Origin: Melioribacter sp. | Lineage (GTDB): Bacteria; Bacteroidota; Ignavibacteria; Ignavibacteriales; Melioribacteraceae | Direction: 5' to 3' | DNA length: 64,000 nucleotides | Assembly: GCA_026417975.1 (NCBI GenBank) | Contig: JAOACD010000015.1 | Location: 62,001 to 126,000 of the forward strand | The notes under the pieces: model-generated | What the model was told of the DNA's origin: nothing | What the model saw: only the letters and a program-made list of their open reading frames with translations | Database searches by the model: none | Shown here: positions 17,838 to 27,550 of the stretch, in pieces | How the letters are laid out: every line of letters starts with the position of its first letter | How positions within the stretch are numbered: position 1 is the first letter of the stretch | Translations under genes and position numbers: made by a program

Positions 17838-17878
17838 AAAAAAAAACTGGTATGGCTGAGGGCGACACCATACCAGTT
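17838..17878 (-). terminator. Intrinsic terminator at the end of the small RNA
   Basis: Arms AACTGGTATGG (17845-17855) and CCATACCAGTT (17868-17878) form a perfect 11-bp stem with a 12-nt loop. On the minus strand the stem runs into nine T (counting two paired ones), a strong rho-independent terminator. The dCMP deaminase start lies 58 bases further along. Confidence 0.88.
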
Positions 17879-17950
17879 CGATATGCTACTATTAGGAGGG
17901 TTTTAGACACTCAGGAACGAGGGCAATTCCTTCGTGTCAAGGGATATTTC
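17838..17950 (-). ncRNA. Candidate structured small RNA or attenuated leader
   Basis: This stretch is clearly richer in GC than the flanking intergenic DNA and has no plausible reading frame. On the minus strand it begins about 7 bases after an exact Bacteroidota-type promoter and ends in a strong terminator hairpin with a T-run, giving about 113 nt. The first stem-loop has arms GACAC/GTGTC and AGGAA/TTCCT, separated by opposing GA steps that could form tandem G-A pairs, with a 9-nt loop TTGCCCTCG. The linker contains CCCTCCT, which resembles an anti-Shine-Dalgarno sequence. The terminator loop again shows GCCCTC. Three exposed C-rich motifs recall trans-acting sRNAs that mask ribosome binding sites. 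Alternatively it is a leader controlling the dCMP deaminase gene 58 bases downstream. I do not recognise a known family. Confidence 0.65.
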
Positions 17951-17956
17951 TTACTA

Positions 17957-17987
17957 CAAATATATATAAACAAAGAATAAAAACAAA
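17957..17987 (-). promoter_or_regulatory. Bacteroidota-type promoter of the small RNA
   Basis: On the minus strand TTTG (17984-17987) is followed after exactly 19 bases by TATATTTG (17957-17964). This matches the known Bacteroidota -33/-7 consensus (TTTG, 19 bases, TAnnTTTG). The start of transcription would fall at about 17950, just before the structured region. Confidence 0.7.
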
Positions 17988-18077: not shown

Positions 18078-19289
18078 TTATTTTTTCAATAATATTCTAA
18101 ACGTAGTTACTTTATTTGGAATTGATTCTTTTAAGTATATCTTGCCGTTGTGGTAATTTTCGATTATTCTTTTAGATAAGCTTAAGCCTAATCCCCATCC
18201 TCTTTTTTTAGTGGAATAACCGGGCTTAAAAATCTCCTTTTTTTTGTTTTGTTCTATTCCTTTGCCAGTATCTGTTATTTCAATAGCTATAAATTTTTTT
18301 GTAGAACTTATAATAAAATCAATTTTGCCTTCTTTTGTCTCTATTGCATCTAATGAATTCTTTATTAAGTTTTCTATTACCCATTCAAATAATTCTGAAT
18401 TAATTTTTGCTTTTACATCTTTTTCACCTGAAATGGAAATTGACACGTTTTTCCCAATTTGTGGGATTCTTCTTTCAAAATAATGAACTACTTTTTGTAT
18501 TATTTCATAAGGAGATTCTTCTTTTAGCTCTGGCTGGGAACCTATTTTAGAAAAGCGTTTCGTTATTTTATTTAACCTATTTAAATCATTTTGAATTTCT
18601 TCTGATATATCTAAAACTTTATCTGGATTGTTATAATTCATTCTTAATATTTCATTCCATCCAAGCAAGCTTGAAATAGGGGTTCCTAACTGATGTGCAG
18701 TTTCCTTTGACATACCAACCCATATGCTACTTTGTTCGTTTTTTCGGATGTAATTGAAACTTGTATATGCAATAAGTAAAAAGAATATTGCAAATATAAT
18801 TTGTAAATATGGGTAATATTTTAATTTTTCAATTATTTCAGAATCACCATAGTATAAATATTGTATAATTTTACCATCTGGAGTTTTAACAGCAATGGGG
18901 GTATGTTGTTTAGATAATTCGTCAAGCTTTTTATTTAGAATGCTAAGAATTTGTTTTTTTGATAATCCCTTTTTTAACTTAATATTTTTATAGCCAATAC
19001 CATCTTCTGTAGAAACTATTTGATGGTTTTGATCAGTCAAAATTAGTGGAAAGTCAATTCTTTGAATTATATTTTGGAAAATGAATGTAAGATCAGTTTC
19101 AACAGTTGTAGTGCTACCAGTTATGTATTCAAGGCTTTTAGCGTAAAGTTCGACTATTTCTTTTTCACGTTTTTGTAGTTTGTTTACAATGTTTTGAGTA
19201 TAAAACCAGGTACCCAAAGCTATTATTGAGCCAATACACAATAGTATAAGTTTGAGTTTCAGATTTAGTGAACTTTTAAAAATTTTCAT
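18078..19289 (-). CDS. Orphan membrane sensor histidine kinase
   Basis: The 403-residue protein has two membrane helices (about 13-29 and 161-180) around a periplasmic sensor of about 130 residues, in which LILTDQNHQIVS has a PAS-like look. The cytoplasmic part carries the H-box SKETAHQLGTPISSLLG with the phosphorylated His near 199. The ATPase domain follows with N-box ENLIKNSLDAIE, G1 DTGKGIE, F-box IFKPGYSTK and G2 GWGLGLSLSKRI. No response regulator gene lies next to it, so its partner is elsewhere. purA lies 18 bases upstream on the same strand and may share its transcript. The sensed signal is unknown. Confidence 0.9.
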   Translation of the reverse strand: MKIFKSSLNLKLKLILLCIGSIIALGTWFYTQNIVNKLQKREKEIVELYAKSLEYITGSTTTVETDLTFIFQNIIQRIDFPLILTDQNHQIVSTEDGIGYKNIKLKKGLSKKQILSILNKKLDELSKQHTPIAVKTPDGKIIQYLYYGDSEIIEKLKYYPYLQIIFAIFFLLIAYTSFNYIRKNEQSSIWVGMSKETAHQLGTPISSLLGWNEILRMNYNNPDKVLDISEEIQNDLNRLNKITKRFSKIGSQPELKEESPYEIIQKVVHYFERRIPQIGKNVSISISGEKDVKAKINSELFEWVIENLIKNSLDAIETKEGKIDFIISSTKKFIAIEITDTGKGIEQNKKKEIFKPGYSTKKRGWGLGLSLSKRIIENYHNGKIYLKESIPNKVTTFRILLKK

Positions 19290-20633: not shown

Positions 20634-20978
20634 TTAATTTTTGCTATAACTATTTACAGCTTCTTCAACAGAATTATAATGTTCAAAAATTGTTATTAAT
20701 TTTGTTATAACTAGAAGACTTTCTATTTTTTCAGTTGCGTTTGCTAACTTAAGATTACCTCCACCATTCTTCATTGTAGTGTAACCACTTATTAACATTC
20801 CTAACCCGGAGCTATTCATAAATTTACATTCTGATAAATCAACAACAATGTTTTTCTTCCCTTCATCTAAAAGCTTGTGAAGTAAATCGCTGAATTTTTG
20901 AGCATCAGGTCCGCCCATAACATTGCCTTTTAGCTCAATAACTACAGCGTTATACTTTTCATAGTGTTTTATAGTCAT
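20634..20978 (-). CDS. STAS-domain anti-sigma factor antagonist
   Basis: The 114-residue protein is a single STAS domain of the SpoIIAA/RsbV type. These bind an anti-sigma kinase when unphosphorylated and are switched off by phosphorylation of a conserved Ser. The expected segment is visible as DLSECKFMNSSGLGMLISGY, with the acceptor Ser in NSSGLG. It is monocistronic, with a terminator directly behind it, and is divergent from the ECF sigma gene. A second STAS protein is encoded at 25075, and the kinase and phosphatases that would act on both lie in the same plus-strand cluster. Confidence 0.9.
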   Translation of the reverse strand: MTIKHYEKYNAVVIELKGNVMGGPDAQKFSDLLHKLLDEGKKNIVVDLSECKFMNSSGLGMLISGYTTMKNGGGNLKLANATEKIESLLVITKLITIFEHYNSVEEAVNSYSKN

Positions 20979-21112
20979 AAAAACTCCATAGATTATTAAT
21001 TAACCATTTTCAATATAAATAATTATTGAATATTATAAAAAACTTTAGTGTTAAGTTTTTATACTTTGTAGATATAATCGCTAATAAATATTTATATTAA
21101 TAAGTAACTTTA

Positions 21113-21144
21113 TTGACATCTAATGTAAAAATAAAATAATTTTA
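21113..21144 (+). promoter_or_regulatory. Putative promoter of the ECF sigma gene
   Basis: TTGACA (21113-21118) is followed after 18 bases by TAATTTTA (21137-21144), close to the TAnnTTTG -7 element of Bacteroidota. It lies about 50 bases before the sigma factor start. The call is based on pattern alone. Confidence 0.4.
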
Positions 21145-21195
21145 ATTCCTAAAATAGAGCTTTTGAATTTTTTATAAAAAAGGAACCAAAGTATT

Positions 21196-21810
21196 TTGTC
21201 TACGTCTAAAATAATGGATGGTATTGAAAGTAAAACTATTGCCAATGTAGATAGTTTGGATATTCAAGATGAGGATTTTGATTTGATTAAGAAGTTTATT
21301 GATGGGGATGAGTCTACATTTAAGACATTAATTATTAAACATAGAGAAAAAGTGAGAAATCTTGTATTTATCACATTAGGAGATACTGAAAATATTGATG
21401 ATATTTCTCAGGATGTTTTTATAAGTGTATACCATAAGCTAAGGGACTTTAGGTTTGAATCTAAATTTACAACATGGCTTTATAGAATTACTATTAATAA
21501 ATGTAGGGATTATTTAAGAAAGAAAAAAATTCGAAGTGTTTTTGTTCCACTCAGTGACTCCGATAAAGATTATCCTGATAAACCTTTTTCTGAGGATATA
21601 GATTTATCGCAAATAGTTCGTAATGCAATTAGTAAATTACCAGAAAAATTAAAAATTCCATTAATACTTAGAGATATTGATGGATTAAGCTATAAAGAAA
21701 TTGCAGAACAGCTAGGTACTGAAGTAGGCACTATAAAATCAAGAATATTTAGGGCACGCGAAGCACTCAAAATAATTTTGGAGCCTTATCAAAAAGAATT
21801 AAAATACTAA
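21196..21810 (+). CDS. ECF-type RNA polymerase sigma factor
   Basis: This 204-residue sigma-70 family protein has only regions 2 and 4, as in extracytoplasmic-function sigma factors. Region 2 contains the sequence DDISQDVFISVYHKLRDF and the -10 recognition part TWLYRITINKCRDYLRK. Region 4 contains LPEKLKIPLILRDIDGLSY and the helix-turn-helix EIAEQLGTEVGTIKSRIFRA. The start is placed at TTG 21196, with AAGGA upstream. An ATG at 21214 is the alternative. No standard anti-sigma gene follows. Instead a broken membrane protein gene and a partner-switching module lie directly downstream, which may control this or another sigma factor. Confidence 0.9.
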   Translation: MSTSKIMDGIESKTIANVDSLDIQDEDFDLIKKFIDGDESTFKTLIIKHREKVRNLVFITLGDTENIDDISQDVFISVYHKLRDFRFESKFTTWLYRITINKCRDYLRKKKIRSVFVPLSDSDKDYPDKPFSEDIDLSQIVRNAISKLPEKLKIPLILRDIDGLSYKEIAEQLGTEVGTIKSRIFRAREALKIILEPYQKELKY

Positions 21811-21820
21811 AAGCCCATAT

Positions 21821-22971
21821 ATGAATAATAAAATTAATATTGAAAAATATTATCCTATTGTACCGATTATTTTACTAACTATTTTTTTGATGATTATTTC
21901 CCATTATAATAAAGAAAACGTAAATAAATTAATTCAGAATAGTAAGAATGATATTATAACTTATGTGGAAAACTTAGTCCCTTTGATTTCTTCCACACAA
22001 TTAGATAATGAGGATATTATTAATTTTGCTTTTTACGAAATAATACCTATAGATAAGCAAACTAATAAAATCTTAATTATTAATAATGAGCCTAGTAATA
22101 TTCAAATACATGAGCTTGAAAATTTACCTTTTAACAAAGAAACTAAAAATTATAAAAGATTAATAAACTATTTTGAGTTAAACAATAAAGAGAAAGTGTT
22201 ACTTGATTCAATTCTTAATTTTTATAAAAAAGAACTTTCACTTTCAATCCTTAGCAATAATAATAGCACAATTGCTATTAACCCAAAACTTCTTGAGCTT
22301 CAGAAGGTTATTCAAGTTGACTTGATTTATTATTTAATGAATGTGAATGGGGAGAGAGTTTTCAAGTTTTTTGGTGATAAAAAGCAATTGCTCAGCGGAA
22401 TTAATTTATCAGAGTTCATTTCTAATTTTAAAAGTGTCCCCTTTAATGAATACATTTTTATTTCCTCTGATACAGTATTCAGAAAGACTTTTACAATAGA
22501 TACGACTAAGTTTAATAAAAAAATAAAAACAGCAAGGCAAGAAATGCAGGAAAAATTAGATAAAATTGATATTAAAATTTCTTTTGAGAAATTTAAGAAT
22601 AATGATTCAAAGTACAATTTTAGAATAGATTCTAATTTTATATAACTTGATGTATCTTTGCCGTTAGAAGAACTTATACCAGAAATGACAGATGATTTTG
22701 TAATTAAGTTTGGTAATTTAGATTCTTTATTTAACGATAAGGATGTAAAGCCTGAATTTAATGATTATAAAAAGAAAAAATTTTTTGATAAAAAAATACA
22801 ATTAGGTTTTCAGAATCCATTGAAATTATAAAAAAAATTAGTGTTGATAGAGAAACAAAAGGACTGGAAGAATTTACAAAGAAAAAAGACTCAATTTCTA
22901 GTGAGTATGAGAAAAATATATCTGATTCAATTATGAAGAAAGTTAGAAATAAAAATTCATTCATTAAATAA
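21821..22971 (+). pseudogene. Decayed gene for a single-span membrane protein
   Basis: A readable frame starts with ATG at 21821, 10 bases after the sigma factor, and codes for 274 residues. It has one N-terminal membrane helix (about residues 12-28) and a large, probably periplasmic part. It stops at TAA 22643-22645. The same frame then continues as coding-like sequence for about 60 codons (starting LDVSLPLEELIPEM). After a shift in the A-rich tract near 22770-22790, the next frame codes a further 55 or so codons (FSESIEIIKKISVDRETKG) ending at 22971. One stop and one frameshift therefore split what looks like a gene of about 380 codons. I recognise no family. It may have been the sensor or regulator partner of the ECF sigma factor. 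Real decay and sequencing error cannot be separated here. Confidence 0.65.
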
Positions 22972-22986
22972 AAGTTGATTTCAACT

Positions 22987-25014
22987 ATGAAGTTTAGTGA
23001 TATAAAGTTGGCACACAAACTCGAAAATTCAATACTAATTTCTATACTACTAATTGTATATAACTTGGTTTTTCCAGTTCGGTCTACATTAGTACTTTTT
23101 TTAATAAATGAATTTTTGGTTTTTGGAGTTTTATATTTTTTATTCAATTACATGAATATTTTTGTGGAGTCTAAAAAGGAATTCCCTTTATCTCTTATCT
23201 TAAAAGTTGGGGTCTTGTCGGCTGTTATGTTTTTTATCAGTTCGTTTATGAATTCTTTTTTGAGAAATAACCAGCAAGAAAATTTTCAGACAAATATATT
23301 TAACTCATTAATATCAATTTTAATGAATTATGTGTTTATAGTAGTTGTTATATACATTCTTTCGACTTTTAGAATTCTCTTTTTTTTACGTCAGACAAAA
23401 GATCGGTCCACCTACTTTAATACAATGATTATTTTTTTTTGTTTAACTTTTTTTTCTGATTTCTCTCGTATTAATTTATCGTTGGATTATGCTCACGATG
23501 CTTTTTATGTAGTTTCTATTGTTTTGATTTGTTTAAATTCTTTGAAAGTTTCTTGGATAGCTTTTCTTACTAAACGACAAAAAACTTATTTACTTTTTAT
23601 TTCTATTGTTCTTTCCGTACTATTTATGGTGAACTATTCGTTAATTAGCGAGAGTAATTCTTTAAGAACTTCATTAAATTCGTTTTCATCCGGATTTTAT
23701 TCTGTTTATAGTTTAGTAATGATTTATGGTATAATTTATTTTGGAATTATATTTTTTACTACCTTATTTCACTTGCCCACAGCAGAAGCCTTCGATAGAA
23801 AATCCGAAGAAGTTTCATCACTTATTGATTTAACAAACCTTATTACTCAAGTTTTTGATTTTAAGGAATTAGCAGATTCAGTCACTTCTATAACTACTAA
23901 AGTTTGTAATTCATATGCAGCATGGCTAGTTACGAAAAAAGGGAATGACTATGAATTGAATTCTGTTAAAAATATAGCATATGTAGATGCAGATAAAATT
24001 GTAAAAAATGTTATCCAAAATGAAAAGTTGTTAGATAACGTTTATATACTTAATTATGATGAGTTAAAGAAAGATTTTAATATTAATAGCATTGACTTTA
24101 GGTCTATTGCTATTGCTCCACTTAAGGTTCATGGAGAAGTTAAAGGCTTTTTATTTGCAGCAAGAAAACATGATGTAAATTTTGATGAAGAAGAGAAACG
24201 CTCAATTCAAGCTTTTGCTTATTATGCAGCAGTAGCTCTTGAAAATGCAAAATTAATTGCCGAATCTATAGAAAAAGAAAGACTTGAAAAAGAACTTGAT
24301 GTCGCGAGAGATATTCAAAGGAGAATACTCCCAAATAAAATTCCTTCTTCTCAACAATTAGAAATATCTGCATTATTTATACCTGCTTTTGAAGTTGGAG
24401 GGGATTACTATGATTTTTTTGAATTAGATGAGAACAAACTGGGTTTTGTAGTAGCTGATGTTTCTGGTAAAGGGATTACAGCAGCCTTTATTATGGCAGA
24501 GATTAAGGGAATATTTGAATCGCTATCTAAAATATTCTTGAAGCCTTCTGAATTATTGACAAATGTAAATAACGTACTAAAAAATAGTTTAGACAAAAAA
24601 AGTTTTGTAACAGCAGTATATGGTGTCATTGATAAACAAAATGGTATTCTAAACTTTGTAAGAGCTGGTCATCCACCAGTAATTTACTGTTCACAGAATA
24701 AAGTTGTACGTCTATTACCATCAGGACTTGGATTAGGATTAGACTATTCGCTTAATTATTTCCAGACATTAAAAGAAGAGCAAATACAGTTAAAAAAGGG
24801 TGACATTATTGTAGTTTATTCTGATGGAATTCCAGAGGCAAAAAATGCTAATTACGAAGACTTTGGTTATGAACGTTTTGAAAAAATTATACAAAGAAAT
24901 TGCAATAAAACGCTTGACGAAATTTCAAATGAAATTATCAAGGAATTAACAATATTTTCAAAAGACAATACTCAACATGACGATATTACTTTGGTTTTAT
25001 TTAGATGGAAATAA
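22987..25014 (+). CDS. Membrane PP2C (SpoIIE/RsbU-type) phosphatase with GAF domain
   Basis: The protein has about 675 residues from ATG 22987; a TTG at 22975 is also possible. The first 265 residues hold around eight membrane helices. A GAF domain (about 280-430) follows, then a short helix with ERLEKELDVARDIQRRILP, the usual linker to PP2C, and the phosphatase domain (about 455-675). Metal-binding motifs are GGDYYDFF, ADVSGKG, RAGHPP, YSDGIPEA and QHDDITLV. Such enzymes dephosphorylate STAS antagonists in partner-switching pathways. The natural substrate here is probably the STAS protein encoded 60 bases downstream. The membrane part and GAF domain would sense an unknown envelope or cytoplasmic signal. 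Confidence 0.9.
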   Translation: MKFSDIKLAHKLENSILISILLIVYNLVFPVRSTLVLFLINEFLVFGVLYFLFNYMNIFVESKKEFPLSLILKVGVLSAVMFFISSFMNSFLRNNQQENFQTNIFNSLISILMNYVFIVVVIYILSTFRILFFLRQTKDRSTYFNTMIIFFCLTFFSDFSRINLSLDYAHDAFYVVSIVLICLNSLKVSWIAFLTKRQKTYLLFISIVLSVLFMVNYSLISESNSLRTSLNSFSSGFYSVYSLVMIYGIIYFGIIFFTTLFHLPTAEAFDRKSEEVSSLIDLTNLITQVFDFKELADSVTSITTKVCNSYAAWLVTKKGNDYELNSVKNIAYVDADKIVKNVIQNEKLLDNVYILNYDELKKDFNINSIDFRSIAIAPLKVHGEVKGFLFAARKHDVNFDEEEKRSIQAFAYYAAVALENAKLIAESIEKERLEKELDVARDIQRRILPNKIPSSQQLEISALFIPAFEVGGDYYDFFELDENKLGFVVADVSGKGITAAFIMAEIKGIFESLSKIFLKPSELLTNVNNVLKNSLDKKSFVTAVYGVIDKQNGILNFVRAGHPPVIYCSQNKVVRLLPSGLGLGLDYSLNYFQTLKEEQIQLKKGDIIVVYSDGIPEAKNANYEDFGYERFEKIIQRNCNKTLDEISNEIIKELTIFSKDNTQHDDITLVLFRWK

Positions 25015-25074
25015 AATTAATATTGTGTCTATAAAATACTGTTAGTGATAACAAAAATTTAAATGAGGTAATTA

Positions 25075-25434
25075 ATGACAGATTTTAATGTAAATCTTAG
25101 GCAAGTTAAAAATGTAAGCATAATTGATCTTAGAGGTTACTTAGATGCCCATACCGCACCCGAATTGGAAAATATTTTTAATAAACTTCTTGAACAAAAG
25201 AAATTTCGGGTCGTAGTTAATTTCAATGATCTTAATTATATAAGTAGCGCTGGTCTTGGAGTTTTTATGGCATATATTGAAATAATGCGTCAGAATAATG
25301 GAGATATCAAGTTTACTAACTTGAAAGAAAATGTTTATAATATTTTTGATTTACTTGGATTCCCTTTATTATATGAGTTTTACAAGGATGAACAGGAAGC
25401 AATTAATAAATTTATTACACAGGAAAACTCTTGA
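25075..25434 (+). CDS. STAS-domain anti-sigma factor antagonist (RsbV-like)
   Basis: A 119-residue single STAS domain. VNFNDLNYISSAGLGVFMAY contains the conserved phosphorylatable Ser in SSAGLG. Its last bases overlap the start of the RsbW-like kinase gene (TTGA), so antagonist and kinase are probably made in fixed ratio by translational coupling. Membrane PP2C phosphatase upstream and soluble PP2C phosphatase downstream complete a partner-switching unit. The sequence differs clearly from the other STAS protein of the window (20634-20978), so they may respond to different signals while sharing the kinase. Confidence 0.92.
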   Translation: MTDFNVNLRQVKNVSIIDLRGYLDAHTAPELENIFNKLLEQKKFRVVVNFNDLNYISSAGLGVFMAYIEIMRQNNGDIKFTNLKENVYNIFDLLGFPLLYEFYKDEQEAINKFITQENS

Positions 25435-25868
25435 ACGAAATAAATAAAAAATTTGAAAAACATCTTACTGTTAAAAGTACTACAGAAAATCTCATAAAAG
25501 TGAGAGAATTTGCAAGAACAGCAGCAGAGGAATGCTTATTCCACGAAGAAGATGTTGAAAAAATAGTTCTTGCAGTCGACGAGGCATGCACAAATATTAT
25601 TAAACATGCATATAACTATTCTCCCGAGGGAATTATAGATATTTCTATTTTTGTTGATAACAATAAATTCGTTATATCTATTGTTGATAATGGAGAAAGT
25701 TTTAATCCAAACATTGTTCCTGAACCTGATATACGTGAATTTTATAAACAGAAAAAAGTAGGTGGTTTGGGTATGTATTTAATGAAGAAGTTAATGGATG
25801 AAGTAAAATATTCAACTGTTAGTGATAATAAAAATCAAGTTATGCTAATTAAGTATTTATATCGTTAA
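25431..25868 (+). CDS. RsbW-like anti-sigma factor serine kinase
   Basis: This 145-residue protein is a GHKL ATPase of the RsbW/SpoIIAB type. It binds a client (usually a sigma factor) and phosphorylates STAS antagonists. The N-box is AVDEACTNIIKHAYNYSPEG, the G1 box is IVDNGESFNP and the G2 box is VGGLGMYLMKKL. The start is TTG at 25431, overlapping the TGA of the STAS gene. The client is not known. The ECF sigma factor at 21196 is nearest, but classical RsbW clients are sigma-B type, and many such kinases in this phylum have non-sigma clients. Confidence 0.9.
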   Translation: MNEINKKFEKHLTVKSTTENLIKVREFARTAAEECLFHEEDVEKIVLAVDEACTNIIKHAYNYSPEGIIDISIFVDNNKFVISIVDNGESFNPNIVPEPDIREFYKQKKVGGLGMYLMKKLMDEVKYSTVSDNKNQVMLIKYLYR

Positions 25869-25870
25869 AA

Positions 25871-27550
25871 ATGCAGAATCTTGATAATTATGCGGCCTTA
25901 AGAAATCTTGCTGCTTTGGTAGATTTTAGTAACCTTATTAATTCTACTTTAGATATTAATTTCGCTCTCAATAATATCCTTCTTACTTGTCTTGGAAAAT
26001 TTCATACTTCTAAAGGATTAATTGCATTATTAGACGAAAATATGTTTTTCCAAGTCAAAGCATACAAGGGGGTACAGAAAGAAGTTATTGATAATTTCCC
26101 AAAAGTTAGTTTAGAAGACTTTTCTACAAATGAAAGATTAAAAGAATTTATTGAAAAAAACAATTTTGAAGTATTAGAAATAATAAAGTCTACTGGAGGA
26201 ATAAAAGGAATATTGTTACTTGGTAAAAGATTGATTAATAAATCATATGAAGAAAATGATATAAGTTTCTTAAAAACGATTTTGAACATAGGAGCAACAG
26301 CAATTGAAAATTCATTAATTGTTGAAAAATTGAAGAAAACAAACCGCGAACTTGATTCAAAGATTAATCAACTTAAATCTCTTTTTGAGTTAAGTAAAGA
26401 GTTTAGTGGAATAATTCAGCCTGATGCAATAGGTAAATTATTAGCATTTACGTTAATGGGACAACTATTTACTTCGAAATATGCAATTATAGTTTGTGAT
26501 AAAAATAATTTTTATTTCTTAGAAAATAGTTTTGATGAGGCTCTTTTAAATTTGGCACTGAAAGAATGTAATGTTAATAATTTTGTTAAACCAATTTCTG
26601 TTGAGGAAATTGCACTTACTTATAAGAGTCTTTTTGATGTAGGAGTAGAATTAATAATTCCTATGCAAATTAAAACAGAAACAAAAGGCTTAATATTATT
26701 AGGTAAGAGGAATAACAATTTATCTTATTCTAATACTGATATTGAGTTCATTTACTCACTAGGTAGTATGGCAATAATATCGATTGAGAATGCAAAATTA
26801 TTTAAGGAGATGCTTGAAAAACAGAGAATGGAAAAAGATTTGGAAACTGCTCGTAACATTCAAAATAATTTGCTCCCTAAATTTATTCCAGAATTATCAA
26901 ACTTAAGTTTGGCTGCCTATAATAATTCAGCTAAAATAGTAGGGGGCGATTATTATGATTTAATAAAACTTGATAATGATAATCTTCTAATAGCCATAGC
27001 AGATGTTTCGGGTAAAGGTGTTCCTGCAGCATTATTGATGGCAAATCTACAAGCCTTCTTAAAATCTATATGTAAGCAAATGCTACCGTTGAACGAGGCA
27101 ACTAATATTATTAACGACTTAGTAGTAGAAAATACAACAATGGGAAGTTTTATAACTTTTTTTTGGTGTATTTTTAATGATTCAACTAAAGAATTAACTT
27201 ATGTTAATGCTGGTCATAATCCTCCTATGCTAATAAGAAATAATGTTATTTATAAGTTAAAAAAGGGGGGGATGGTATTAGGATTTTTACCAACGTCGGT
27301 TCCTTATATTTCAGAAACAATCAAACTTCAAAAAGGTGATGTTATTATTTTATATACGGATGGTATAACAGAAGCAATGAATAAAAATTTTGAGGAGTAT
27401 ACTGATGAACGTTTTGAACAATTAGTTCTTAATAATTCTTTATATGAGCCAAATACTATATTAGAGCAAATAAGAAAGAGTGTAGAAGAATTTATTAATG
27501 GGGCCGAGCAAAGCGACGATATAACATGTATAGTTATGAAAGTTAAGTAA
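25871..27550 (+). CDS. PP2C phosphatase with tandem GAF-like domains
   Basis: This 559-residue protein has no membrane segment. Residues 10-155 and about 165-315 look like two GAF domains. A helix with MEKDLETARNIQNNLLPKF leads to a PP2C/SpoIIE domain (about 330-559). The metal-binding motifs are GGDYYDLI, ADVSGKG, NAGHNPP, YTDGITEA and QSDDITCIV. It begins 2 bases after the kinase gene, so the STAS, kinase and phosphatase genes form one unit. With the membrane phosphatase upstream, the module has two input branches onto the same STAS/kinase pair, one membrane and one soluble. Confidence 0.9.
   Translation: MQNLDNYAALRNLAALVDFSNLINSTLDINFALNNILLTCLGKFHTSKGLIALLDENMFFQVKAYKGVQKEVIDNFPKVSLEDFSTNERLKEFIEKNNFEVLEIIKSTGGIKGILLLGKRLINKSYEENDISFLKTILNIGATAIENSLIVEKLKKTNRELDSKINQLKSLFELSKEFSGIIQPDAIGKLLAFTLMGQLFTSKYAIIVCDKNNFYFLENSFDEALLNLALKECNVNNFVKPISVEEIALTYKSLFDVGVELIIPMQIKTETKGLILLGKRNNNLSYSNTDIEFIYSLGSMAIISIENAKLFKEMLEKQRMEKDLETARNIQNNLLPKFIPELSNLSLAAYNNSAKIVGGDYYDLIKLDNDNLLIAIADVSGKGVPAALLMANLQAFLKSICKQMLPLNEATNIINDLVVENTTMGSFITFFWCIFNDSTKELTYVNAGHNPPMLIRNNVIYKLKKGGMVLGFLPTSVPYISETIKLQKGDVIILYTDGITEAMNKNFEEYTDERFEQLVLNNSLYEPNTILEQIRKSVEEFINGAEQSDDITCIVMKVK

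What the first reader, a model, noticed from the sequence alone, without database searches (positions are those of the whole stretch)
17838..17950. Undescribed structured small RNA with its own promoter and terminator
The stretch has an exact Bacteroidota promoter, a GC-rich non-coding body and a strong terminator, so an RNA of about 113 nt is very likely made. Its three unpaired segments are C-rich: GCCCTC in both loops and CCCTCCT in the linker. The linker segment resembles the 16S rRNA anti-Shine-Dalgarno sequence. That pattern is known from sRNAs that block ribosome binding sites in other phyla, but I know of no such RNA for this group. Opposing GA steps in the first stem suggest tandem G-A pairs.
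Basis: partly seen in the sequence, partly recalled or inferred. Interest (0 to 1): 0.75.

Follow-up and report, generated by a model that had tools for sequence, protein, structure and literature searches.

The report
Conserved C-rich small RNA of Ignavibacteria
The stretch is a real small-RNA gene, one member of a previously undescribed family carried by most sequenced members of a whole bacterial order; most relatives switch it on through the specialised sigma-54 system, and its constant C-rich loops look built to cover the ribosome-landing sites of messenger RNAs, but no target is known yet.

Summary
The RNA folds far better than shuffles (z -5.05). A covariance model of its linker and terminator finds relatives in 117 of 164 genomes of its order (Ignavibacteriales) and in one further family of the class Ignavibacteria. 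It matches no Rfam family. All 12 terminator-stem pairs change on both sides in some relatives and 97% of cells stay paired, while the loop stays GCCCTC in 91 of 94 copies. The linker CCCTCC is kept in 62 of 94.

New here: two thirds of the relatives have a textbook sigma-54 promoter (TGGYAY-N5-TTG) just upstream, plus a conserved upstream motif. The window's own genus has a Bacteroidota housekeeping promoter instead. The gene usually follows a histidine-kinase gene.

Two details did not hold. The 5' hairpin with the second GCCCTC loop is almost confined to the window's genus, and the tandem G-A pairs are not conserved.

Most likely it is a base-pairing sRNA that masks Shine-Dalgarno sites, which Ignavibacteria use for a minority of genes. 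No conserved target was found, so the mechanism is inferred. It works like rhizobial alpha-r14 and staphylococcal Rsa RNAs but belongs to neither.

The parts
17957..17987 (-). Bacteroidota-type housekeeping promoter: TTTG (17987-17984), 19 nt, TATATTTG (17964-17957)
   Evidence: Read directly; same layout in both congeners and absent from most lineages that carry a sigma-54 promoter
17838..17950 (-). sRNA gene, about 113 nt, start near 17953-17950, end in the T tract
   Evidence: Fold z -5.05; relatives in 117 of 164 genomes of the order; no Rfam match
17906..17938 (-). 5' hairpin with internal GA/GA steps; variable outside the genus
   Evidence: Fold; three congeners only, AA/GA in G001
17919..17924 (-). 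GCCCTC in the 5' hairpin loop
   Evidence: Direct; present in the genus, GCCCT at a similar place in only two other copies
17894..17900 (-). CCCTCCT in the single-stranded linker, anti-Shine-Dalgarno-like
   Evidence: CCCTCC in 62 of 94 relatives
17845..17878 (-). Terminator hairpin, stem AACTGGTATGG / CCATACCAGTT
   Evidence: 12 of 12 pairs of the modelled helix with two-sided changes, 97% of cells paired
17858..17863 (-). Nearly invariant GCCCTC in the terminator loop
   Evidence: 91 of 94 relatives, with 61 different 5' stem arms
17838..17846 (-). T9 tract of the intrinsic terminator
   Evidence: Direct
18078..19289 (-). Histidine kinase gene, conserved upstream neighbour (associated, not part of the RNA)
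   Evidence: Pfam HATPase_c and HisKA; homologue is the upstream neighbour at 57 of about 94 loci

Best explanation
It is a trans-acting small RNA of a family found in Ignavibacteria. Its unpaired C-rich segments (GCCCUC in the terminator loop, CCCUCCU in the linker, and in this genus a second GCCCUC loop) pair with G-rich Shine-Dalgarno regions of messenger RNAs and block translation initiation. In most relatives transcription needs sigma-54 and an activator bound about 75 bp upstream of the -24 box, so the RNA is made on a signal. In the window's genus the promoter is a housekeeping one instead. Shown by computation: the gene, its conservation, the stem covariation, the nearly invariant loop, the sigma-54 promoter sequences and the synteny. 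Inferred: transcription, activator binding, pairing to Shine-Dalgarno sites, translational repression, and any link to the neighbouring histidine kinase.
For: Structure z -5.05. CM hits in 117/164 genomes and 53/68 genera of the order and in a second family of the class. Covariation at 12/12 pairs, score 0.65 vs 0.27 shuffled and at most 0.17 when slid. GCCCTC loop in 91/94 with 61 distinct stem arms; CCCTCC linker in 62/94. CCCT occurs 2.0 times per RNA and AGGG never; unpaired C:G is 963:250. Sigma-54 boxes in 48/76 against 0.34 expected, in one fixed interval, with the sixth position always a pyrimidine although the search left it free. Upstream TTCYC motif in 26/63 at one fixed distance against 1.5 expected. 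In Ignavibacteriaceae it often lies between a divergent nadA-like gene and a convergent gene, so it cannot be a leader there. The class uses Shine-Dalgarno sites: G rises to 38% at -9, GGAG in 20% of starts vs 4% in control, and PMC10783764 reports 32%.
Against: No conserved target: AGGAGGG near ATG is only modestly enriched over the reversed control in the genus (15 vs 11, 30 vs 16, 22 vs 13), and the cysD site is not kept in congeners. Hfq was not found in 8 genomes, so no classical chaperone is known. Many copies (g18 tandem genes, for example) lack CCCTCC in the linker. No expression data were available.
Confidence: 0.6

Rival explanations
1. A protein-titrating RNA: the repeated CCCUC segments, presented in loops, bind and sequester an RNA-binding protein, as CsrB-type or CrcZ-type RNAs do.
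For: Two to three repeats of a short motif in unpaired segments, sigma-54 control as known for CrcZ (own knowledge), tandem copies in genus g18.
Against: Only about two motifs per RNA, fewer than typical sponges; no known C-rich-binding regulator in this group; the linker motif resembles the anti-Shine-Dalgarno core.
Confidence: 0.17
2. A sponge RNA that pairs with another, G-rich small RNA or 3' UTR fragment rather than with Shine-Dalgarno sites.
For: Short constant C-rich seeds in a terminator loop would fit; sponge RNAs are known for RoxS in Bacillus and in Caulobacter (abstracts listed).
Against: No G-rich partner RNA is known in the group; not searched for systematically here.
Confidence: 0.1
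3. A cis element only: terminator of the histidine kinase transcript or a leader/attenuator of the downstream dCMP deaminase gene.
For: In Melioribacteraceae it often lies between these two co-directional genes.
Against: It has its own promoter in both promoter classes, and in Ignavibacteriaceae the neighbours are divergent or convergent and differ.
Confidence: 0.04
4. A chance hairpin plus terminator without function.
For: Terminators are common; the phylum-wide hits outside the class that were read are generic terminators.
Against: Family-wide covariation, nearly invariant loop, and promoter and synteny features that were not in the search model.
Confidence: 0.01

Closest known systems
alpha-r14 sRNAs of Rhizobiales (NfeR1/NfeR2, SmelA075/SmelA099)
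   Same: Loops carry a near-identical C-rich anti-Shine-Dalgarno motif while the stems diverge (PMC3927594, PMC10746234). Same logic as seen here.
   Different: Motif there is CCUCCUCCC in three or four hairpins; here GCCCUC in the terminator loop and CCCUCC in a linker. NfeR1 lacks a sigma-54 signature and NtrC represses it. No sequence relationship found.
Staphylococcus aureus Rsa RNAs and RNAIII (UCCC motif)
   Same: Accessible C-rich boxes aimed at ribosome binding sites (PMC3861533).
   Different: Different motif, phylum and promoters; no homology detected.
Pxr of Myxobacteria
   Same: sRNA behind an apparent sigma-54 promoter, next to a regulator gene, with tandem paralogues in some species (PMC5568312).
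   Different: Neighbour is a sigma-54-dependent response regulator, here a histidine kinase; Pxr is described as a triple stem-loop. The sequences were not compared directly.
Qrr sRNAs of Vibrio
   Same: Sigma-54-driven, about 100 nt, multiple copies (own knowledge; copies noted in PMC5568312).
   Different: Hfq-dependent, LuxO-controlled (own knowledge); no Rfam match here, and no Hfq found in 8 Ignavibacteria genomes.

Membership tests
Any Rfam 15 family | Match at or above the gathering score | tested here: not met
   No match in the window or 20 loci of relatives; best sub-threshold psRNA6 16.5 bits vs 60
alpha-r14 sRNAs | CCUCCUCCC motif in the loop of each of three or four hairpins | tested here: not met
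   Motif is GCCCTC/CCCTCC and sits in one or two loops plus a linker
alpha-r14 sRNAs | Constant C-rich unpaired motif with variable stems | tested here: met
   GCCCTC in 91/94 with 61 different stem arms; 12/12 covarying pairs
Staphylococcal Rsa / UCCC RNAs | Accessible UCCC motif | tested here: not met
   The conserved motifs are GCCCUC and CCCUCC, not UCCC (A3 rows)
Sigma-54-dependent sRNAs (functional class) | -24/-12 promoter TGGCAY-N5-TTG upstream | tested here: met
   48/76 strict, 54/76 allowing CGG. Not met in the window's own genus, which has a TTTG...TAnnTTTG promoter
Sigma-54-dependent sRNAs (functional class) | rpoN present in the genome | tested here: met
   158/164 genomes of the order, including the window's
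Qrr sRNAs | Homology to the Rfam Qrr model | tested here: not met
   No Rfam match
Anti-Shine-Dalgarno base-pairing sRNAs (functional class) | Demonstrated pairing to target ribosome binding sites | tested here: inconclusive
   Candidate sites exist but none shown to be conserved beyond two species
Hfq-dependent sRNAs | Host has Hfq | tested here: not met
   0 of 8 genomes; positive control genomes ring

The most novel reading that the evidence does not exclude
A sigma-54-controlled, apparently Hfq-independent riboregulator, conserved across the class Ignavibacteria, that represses the minority of genes led by a Shine-Dalgarno site. It would be a global translational switch in a lineage beside Bacteroidia, where such sites are barely used, and its control would have been rewired between sigma-54 and housekeeping promoters several times.
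Probability: 0.3. Interest if true: 0.8.

Novelty: new variant of a known kind. Interest (0 to 1): 0.63.

Why it matters
No riboregulator turned up for Ignavibacteria in the searches made here. This family gives the class a defined, testable regulatory RNA present in most genomes of its main order. It links sigma-54 signalling to translation in a group where the Shine-Dalgarno mechanism is only partly used and Hfq was not found. The different promoter types on one conserved RNA are a natural experiment in how sRNA genes change their controller.

Tried and rejected
Rfam membership: none; psRNA6 sub-threshold hit rejected. Viral contigs: no match to the terminator pattern. Phylum-wide CM hits outside the class: those read were rejected as generic terminators lacking the loop. 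Loss of rpoN as the reason for the promoter difference: rejected, since rpoN is present in the window's genome and both congeners. Targets: the AGGAGGG-N2-14-ATG scan of the genus gave a mix of real starts and chance sites. cysD was dropped because the site is not kept in congeners. A small GYD-like protein (named from its sequence, not by a family search) keeps AGGAGGG in the two congeners where it was found and has the strongest predicted duplex (-30.0 kcal/mol), but the start of its third homologue (52% identity) was not located, so it stays a lead. Duplex energies of candidates overlap the upper tail of ordinary gene starts (best null -25.9), so they are not evidence. Attenuator or terminator-only model: rejected from neighbour layout.

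Full report
Observation. The 113-nt RNA folds at -33.2 kcal/mol against -17.95 +/- 3.02 for shuffles, z -5.05. The promoter TTTG-N19-TATATTTG ends at 17957. The gene is intergenic, between a histidine kinase gene and a dCMP deaminase gene. No Rfam family matches.

Relatives. BLAST found 90-93% copies in two congeners and short matches in other genera. These kept the linker CCCTCCT and the GCCCTC terminator loop. A covariance model of linker plus terminator (R1, six sequences) found copies across the order. A second model from 76 copies (R2) gives 117 of 164 genomes, 87 of 109 good-quality genomes and 53 of 68 genera at E <= 0.001. In the class it adds one more family (f13); three of its genomes also carry a second paralogue, a CCTCCT / CCCTCC variant. 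Across the phylum, the matches outside the class that I read were generic terminators. Named genomes with the terminator pattern are nearly all labelled Ignavibacteria, Ignavibacteriales, Ignavibacteriaceae, Stygiobacter or Melioribacter; a few carry only the label Bacteroidetes bacterium.

Structure. Over 95 distinct rows the terminator helix has two-sided changes at all 12 pairs, 96.9% of cells paired, covariation score 0.638 vs 0.250 +/- 0.011 shuffled and at most 0.164 when slid; the cleaner set of 76 gives the same picture. Despite 61 different 5' stem arms, GCCCTC stays in 91 of 94 loops, and CCCTCC is in 62 of 94 linkers. Because the model was trained on these motifs and on this helix, the counts alone lean towards them. 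Features outside the model support the copies independently: promoter, neighbours, and a TTTAAA just after the terminator in 54 of 94. The 5' hairpin differs between lineages; essentially only the window's genus has the second GCCCTC loop in it, and the G-A steps vary.

Promoters. Upstream of the core, 48 of 76 copies have TGG[CT]AN-N5-TT[GT] within one 55-nt interval; the mean for shuffles is 0.34, and other upstream intervals have 0-2. In the matches the position left free is always C or T, and the last position always G, as in sigma-54 promoters. Around 75 bp further upstream a TTCYC motif occurs in 26 of 63 (1.5 expected), and eight copies have GTAA-N3-TTAC there; these look like activator sites. 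The window's genus and some other lineages use housekeeping-type promoters instead, although rpoN is present in the window's genome.

Neighbours. A histidine kinase homologue is the upstream neighbour at 57 loci, dCMP deaminase the downstream one at 39, and at 20 loci the upstream neighbour is a divergent nadA-like gene (nadA named from its sequence, not by a family search). The differing and divergent neighbours make it a free-standing gene.

Mechanism. Unpaired residues in sigma-54-type copies are C-rich (963 C, 250 G); CCCT occurs twice per RNA on average and AGGG never. The class uses Shine-Dalgarno sites in part: G enrichment at -12 to -5 and GGAG in 20% of starts against 4% in control (starts were taken as the first ATG, so this is approximate); PMC10783764 gives 32% with antiSD CCUCCUUU. 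The linker of many copies contains CCTCCT(T). This is the pattern of alpha-r14 RNAs, where an ultraconserved aSD loop sits on diverging stems (PMC10746234; PMC3927594), and of UCCC RNAs in Staphylococcus (PMC3861533). I therefore favour translational repression by pairing to Shine-Dalgarno sites, at about 0.6. Target search was inconclusive. Hfq was not found in eight genomes, so any chaperone is unknown.

Verdict. A real and, as far as the searches here show, undescribed sRNA family; the kind of action is known from elsewhere, while the lineage, motif arrangement and sigma-54 control are new.

Noticed in passing
L101 (G097 C33), L083, L102, L107, L118: Genus g18 has two to three tandem copies of the RNA gene plus dispersed ones (up to eight matches in G042), with GCCCTC loops but mostly no CCCTCC linker and a CTTCCCT tail.
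   Followed up: partly
L028 (G001 C2:491276-491313): A congener has a second, partial copy with GCCCTC and AACCCTCCTAATAA but without the terminator hairpin; possibly a decayed paralogue.
   Followed up: partly
Upstream of most relatives, e.g. L052, L067, L071, L111: About 75 bp upstream of the sigma-54 -24 box a conserved TTCTC/TTCCC arm, or GTAA-N3-TTAC in some genera, suggests an activator site.
   Followed up: partly
3' of the terminator in 54 of 94 copies: TTTAAA follows the terminator T tract in many copies; meaning unknown.
   Followed up: no
G019 (g18): A 99%-complete genome with the RNA has no detectable sigma-54 DNA-binding domain; no sigma-54 promoter was seen at its copies.
   Followed up: no
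window 20634-27550: STAS protein, ECF-type sigma factor and two SpoIIE phosphatases close together, a likely partner-switching cluster.
   Followed up: no
L169-L171: A second paralogue in family f13 carries CCTCCT twice and a CCCTCC loop, without a recognisable sigma-54 promoter in the stretch read.
   Followed up: partly
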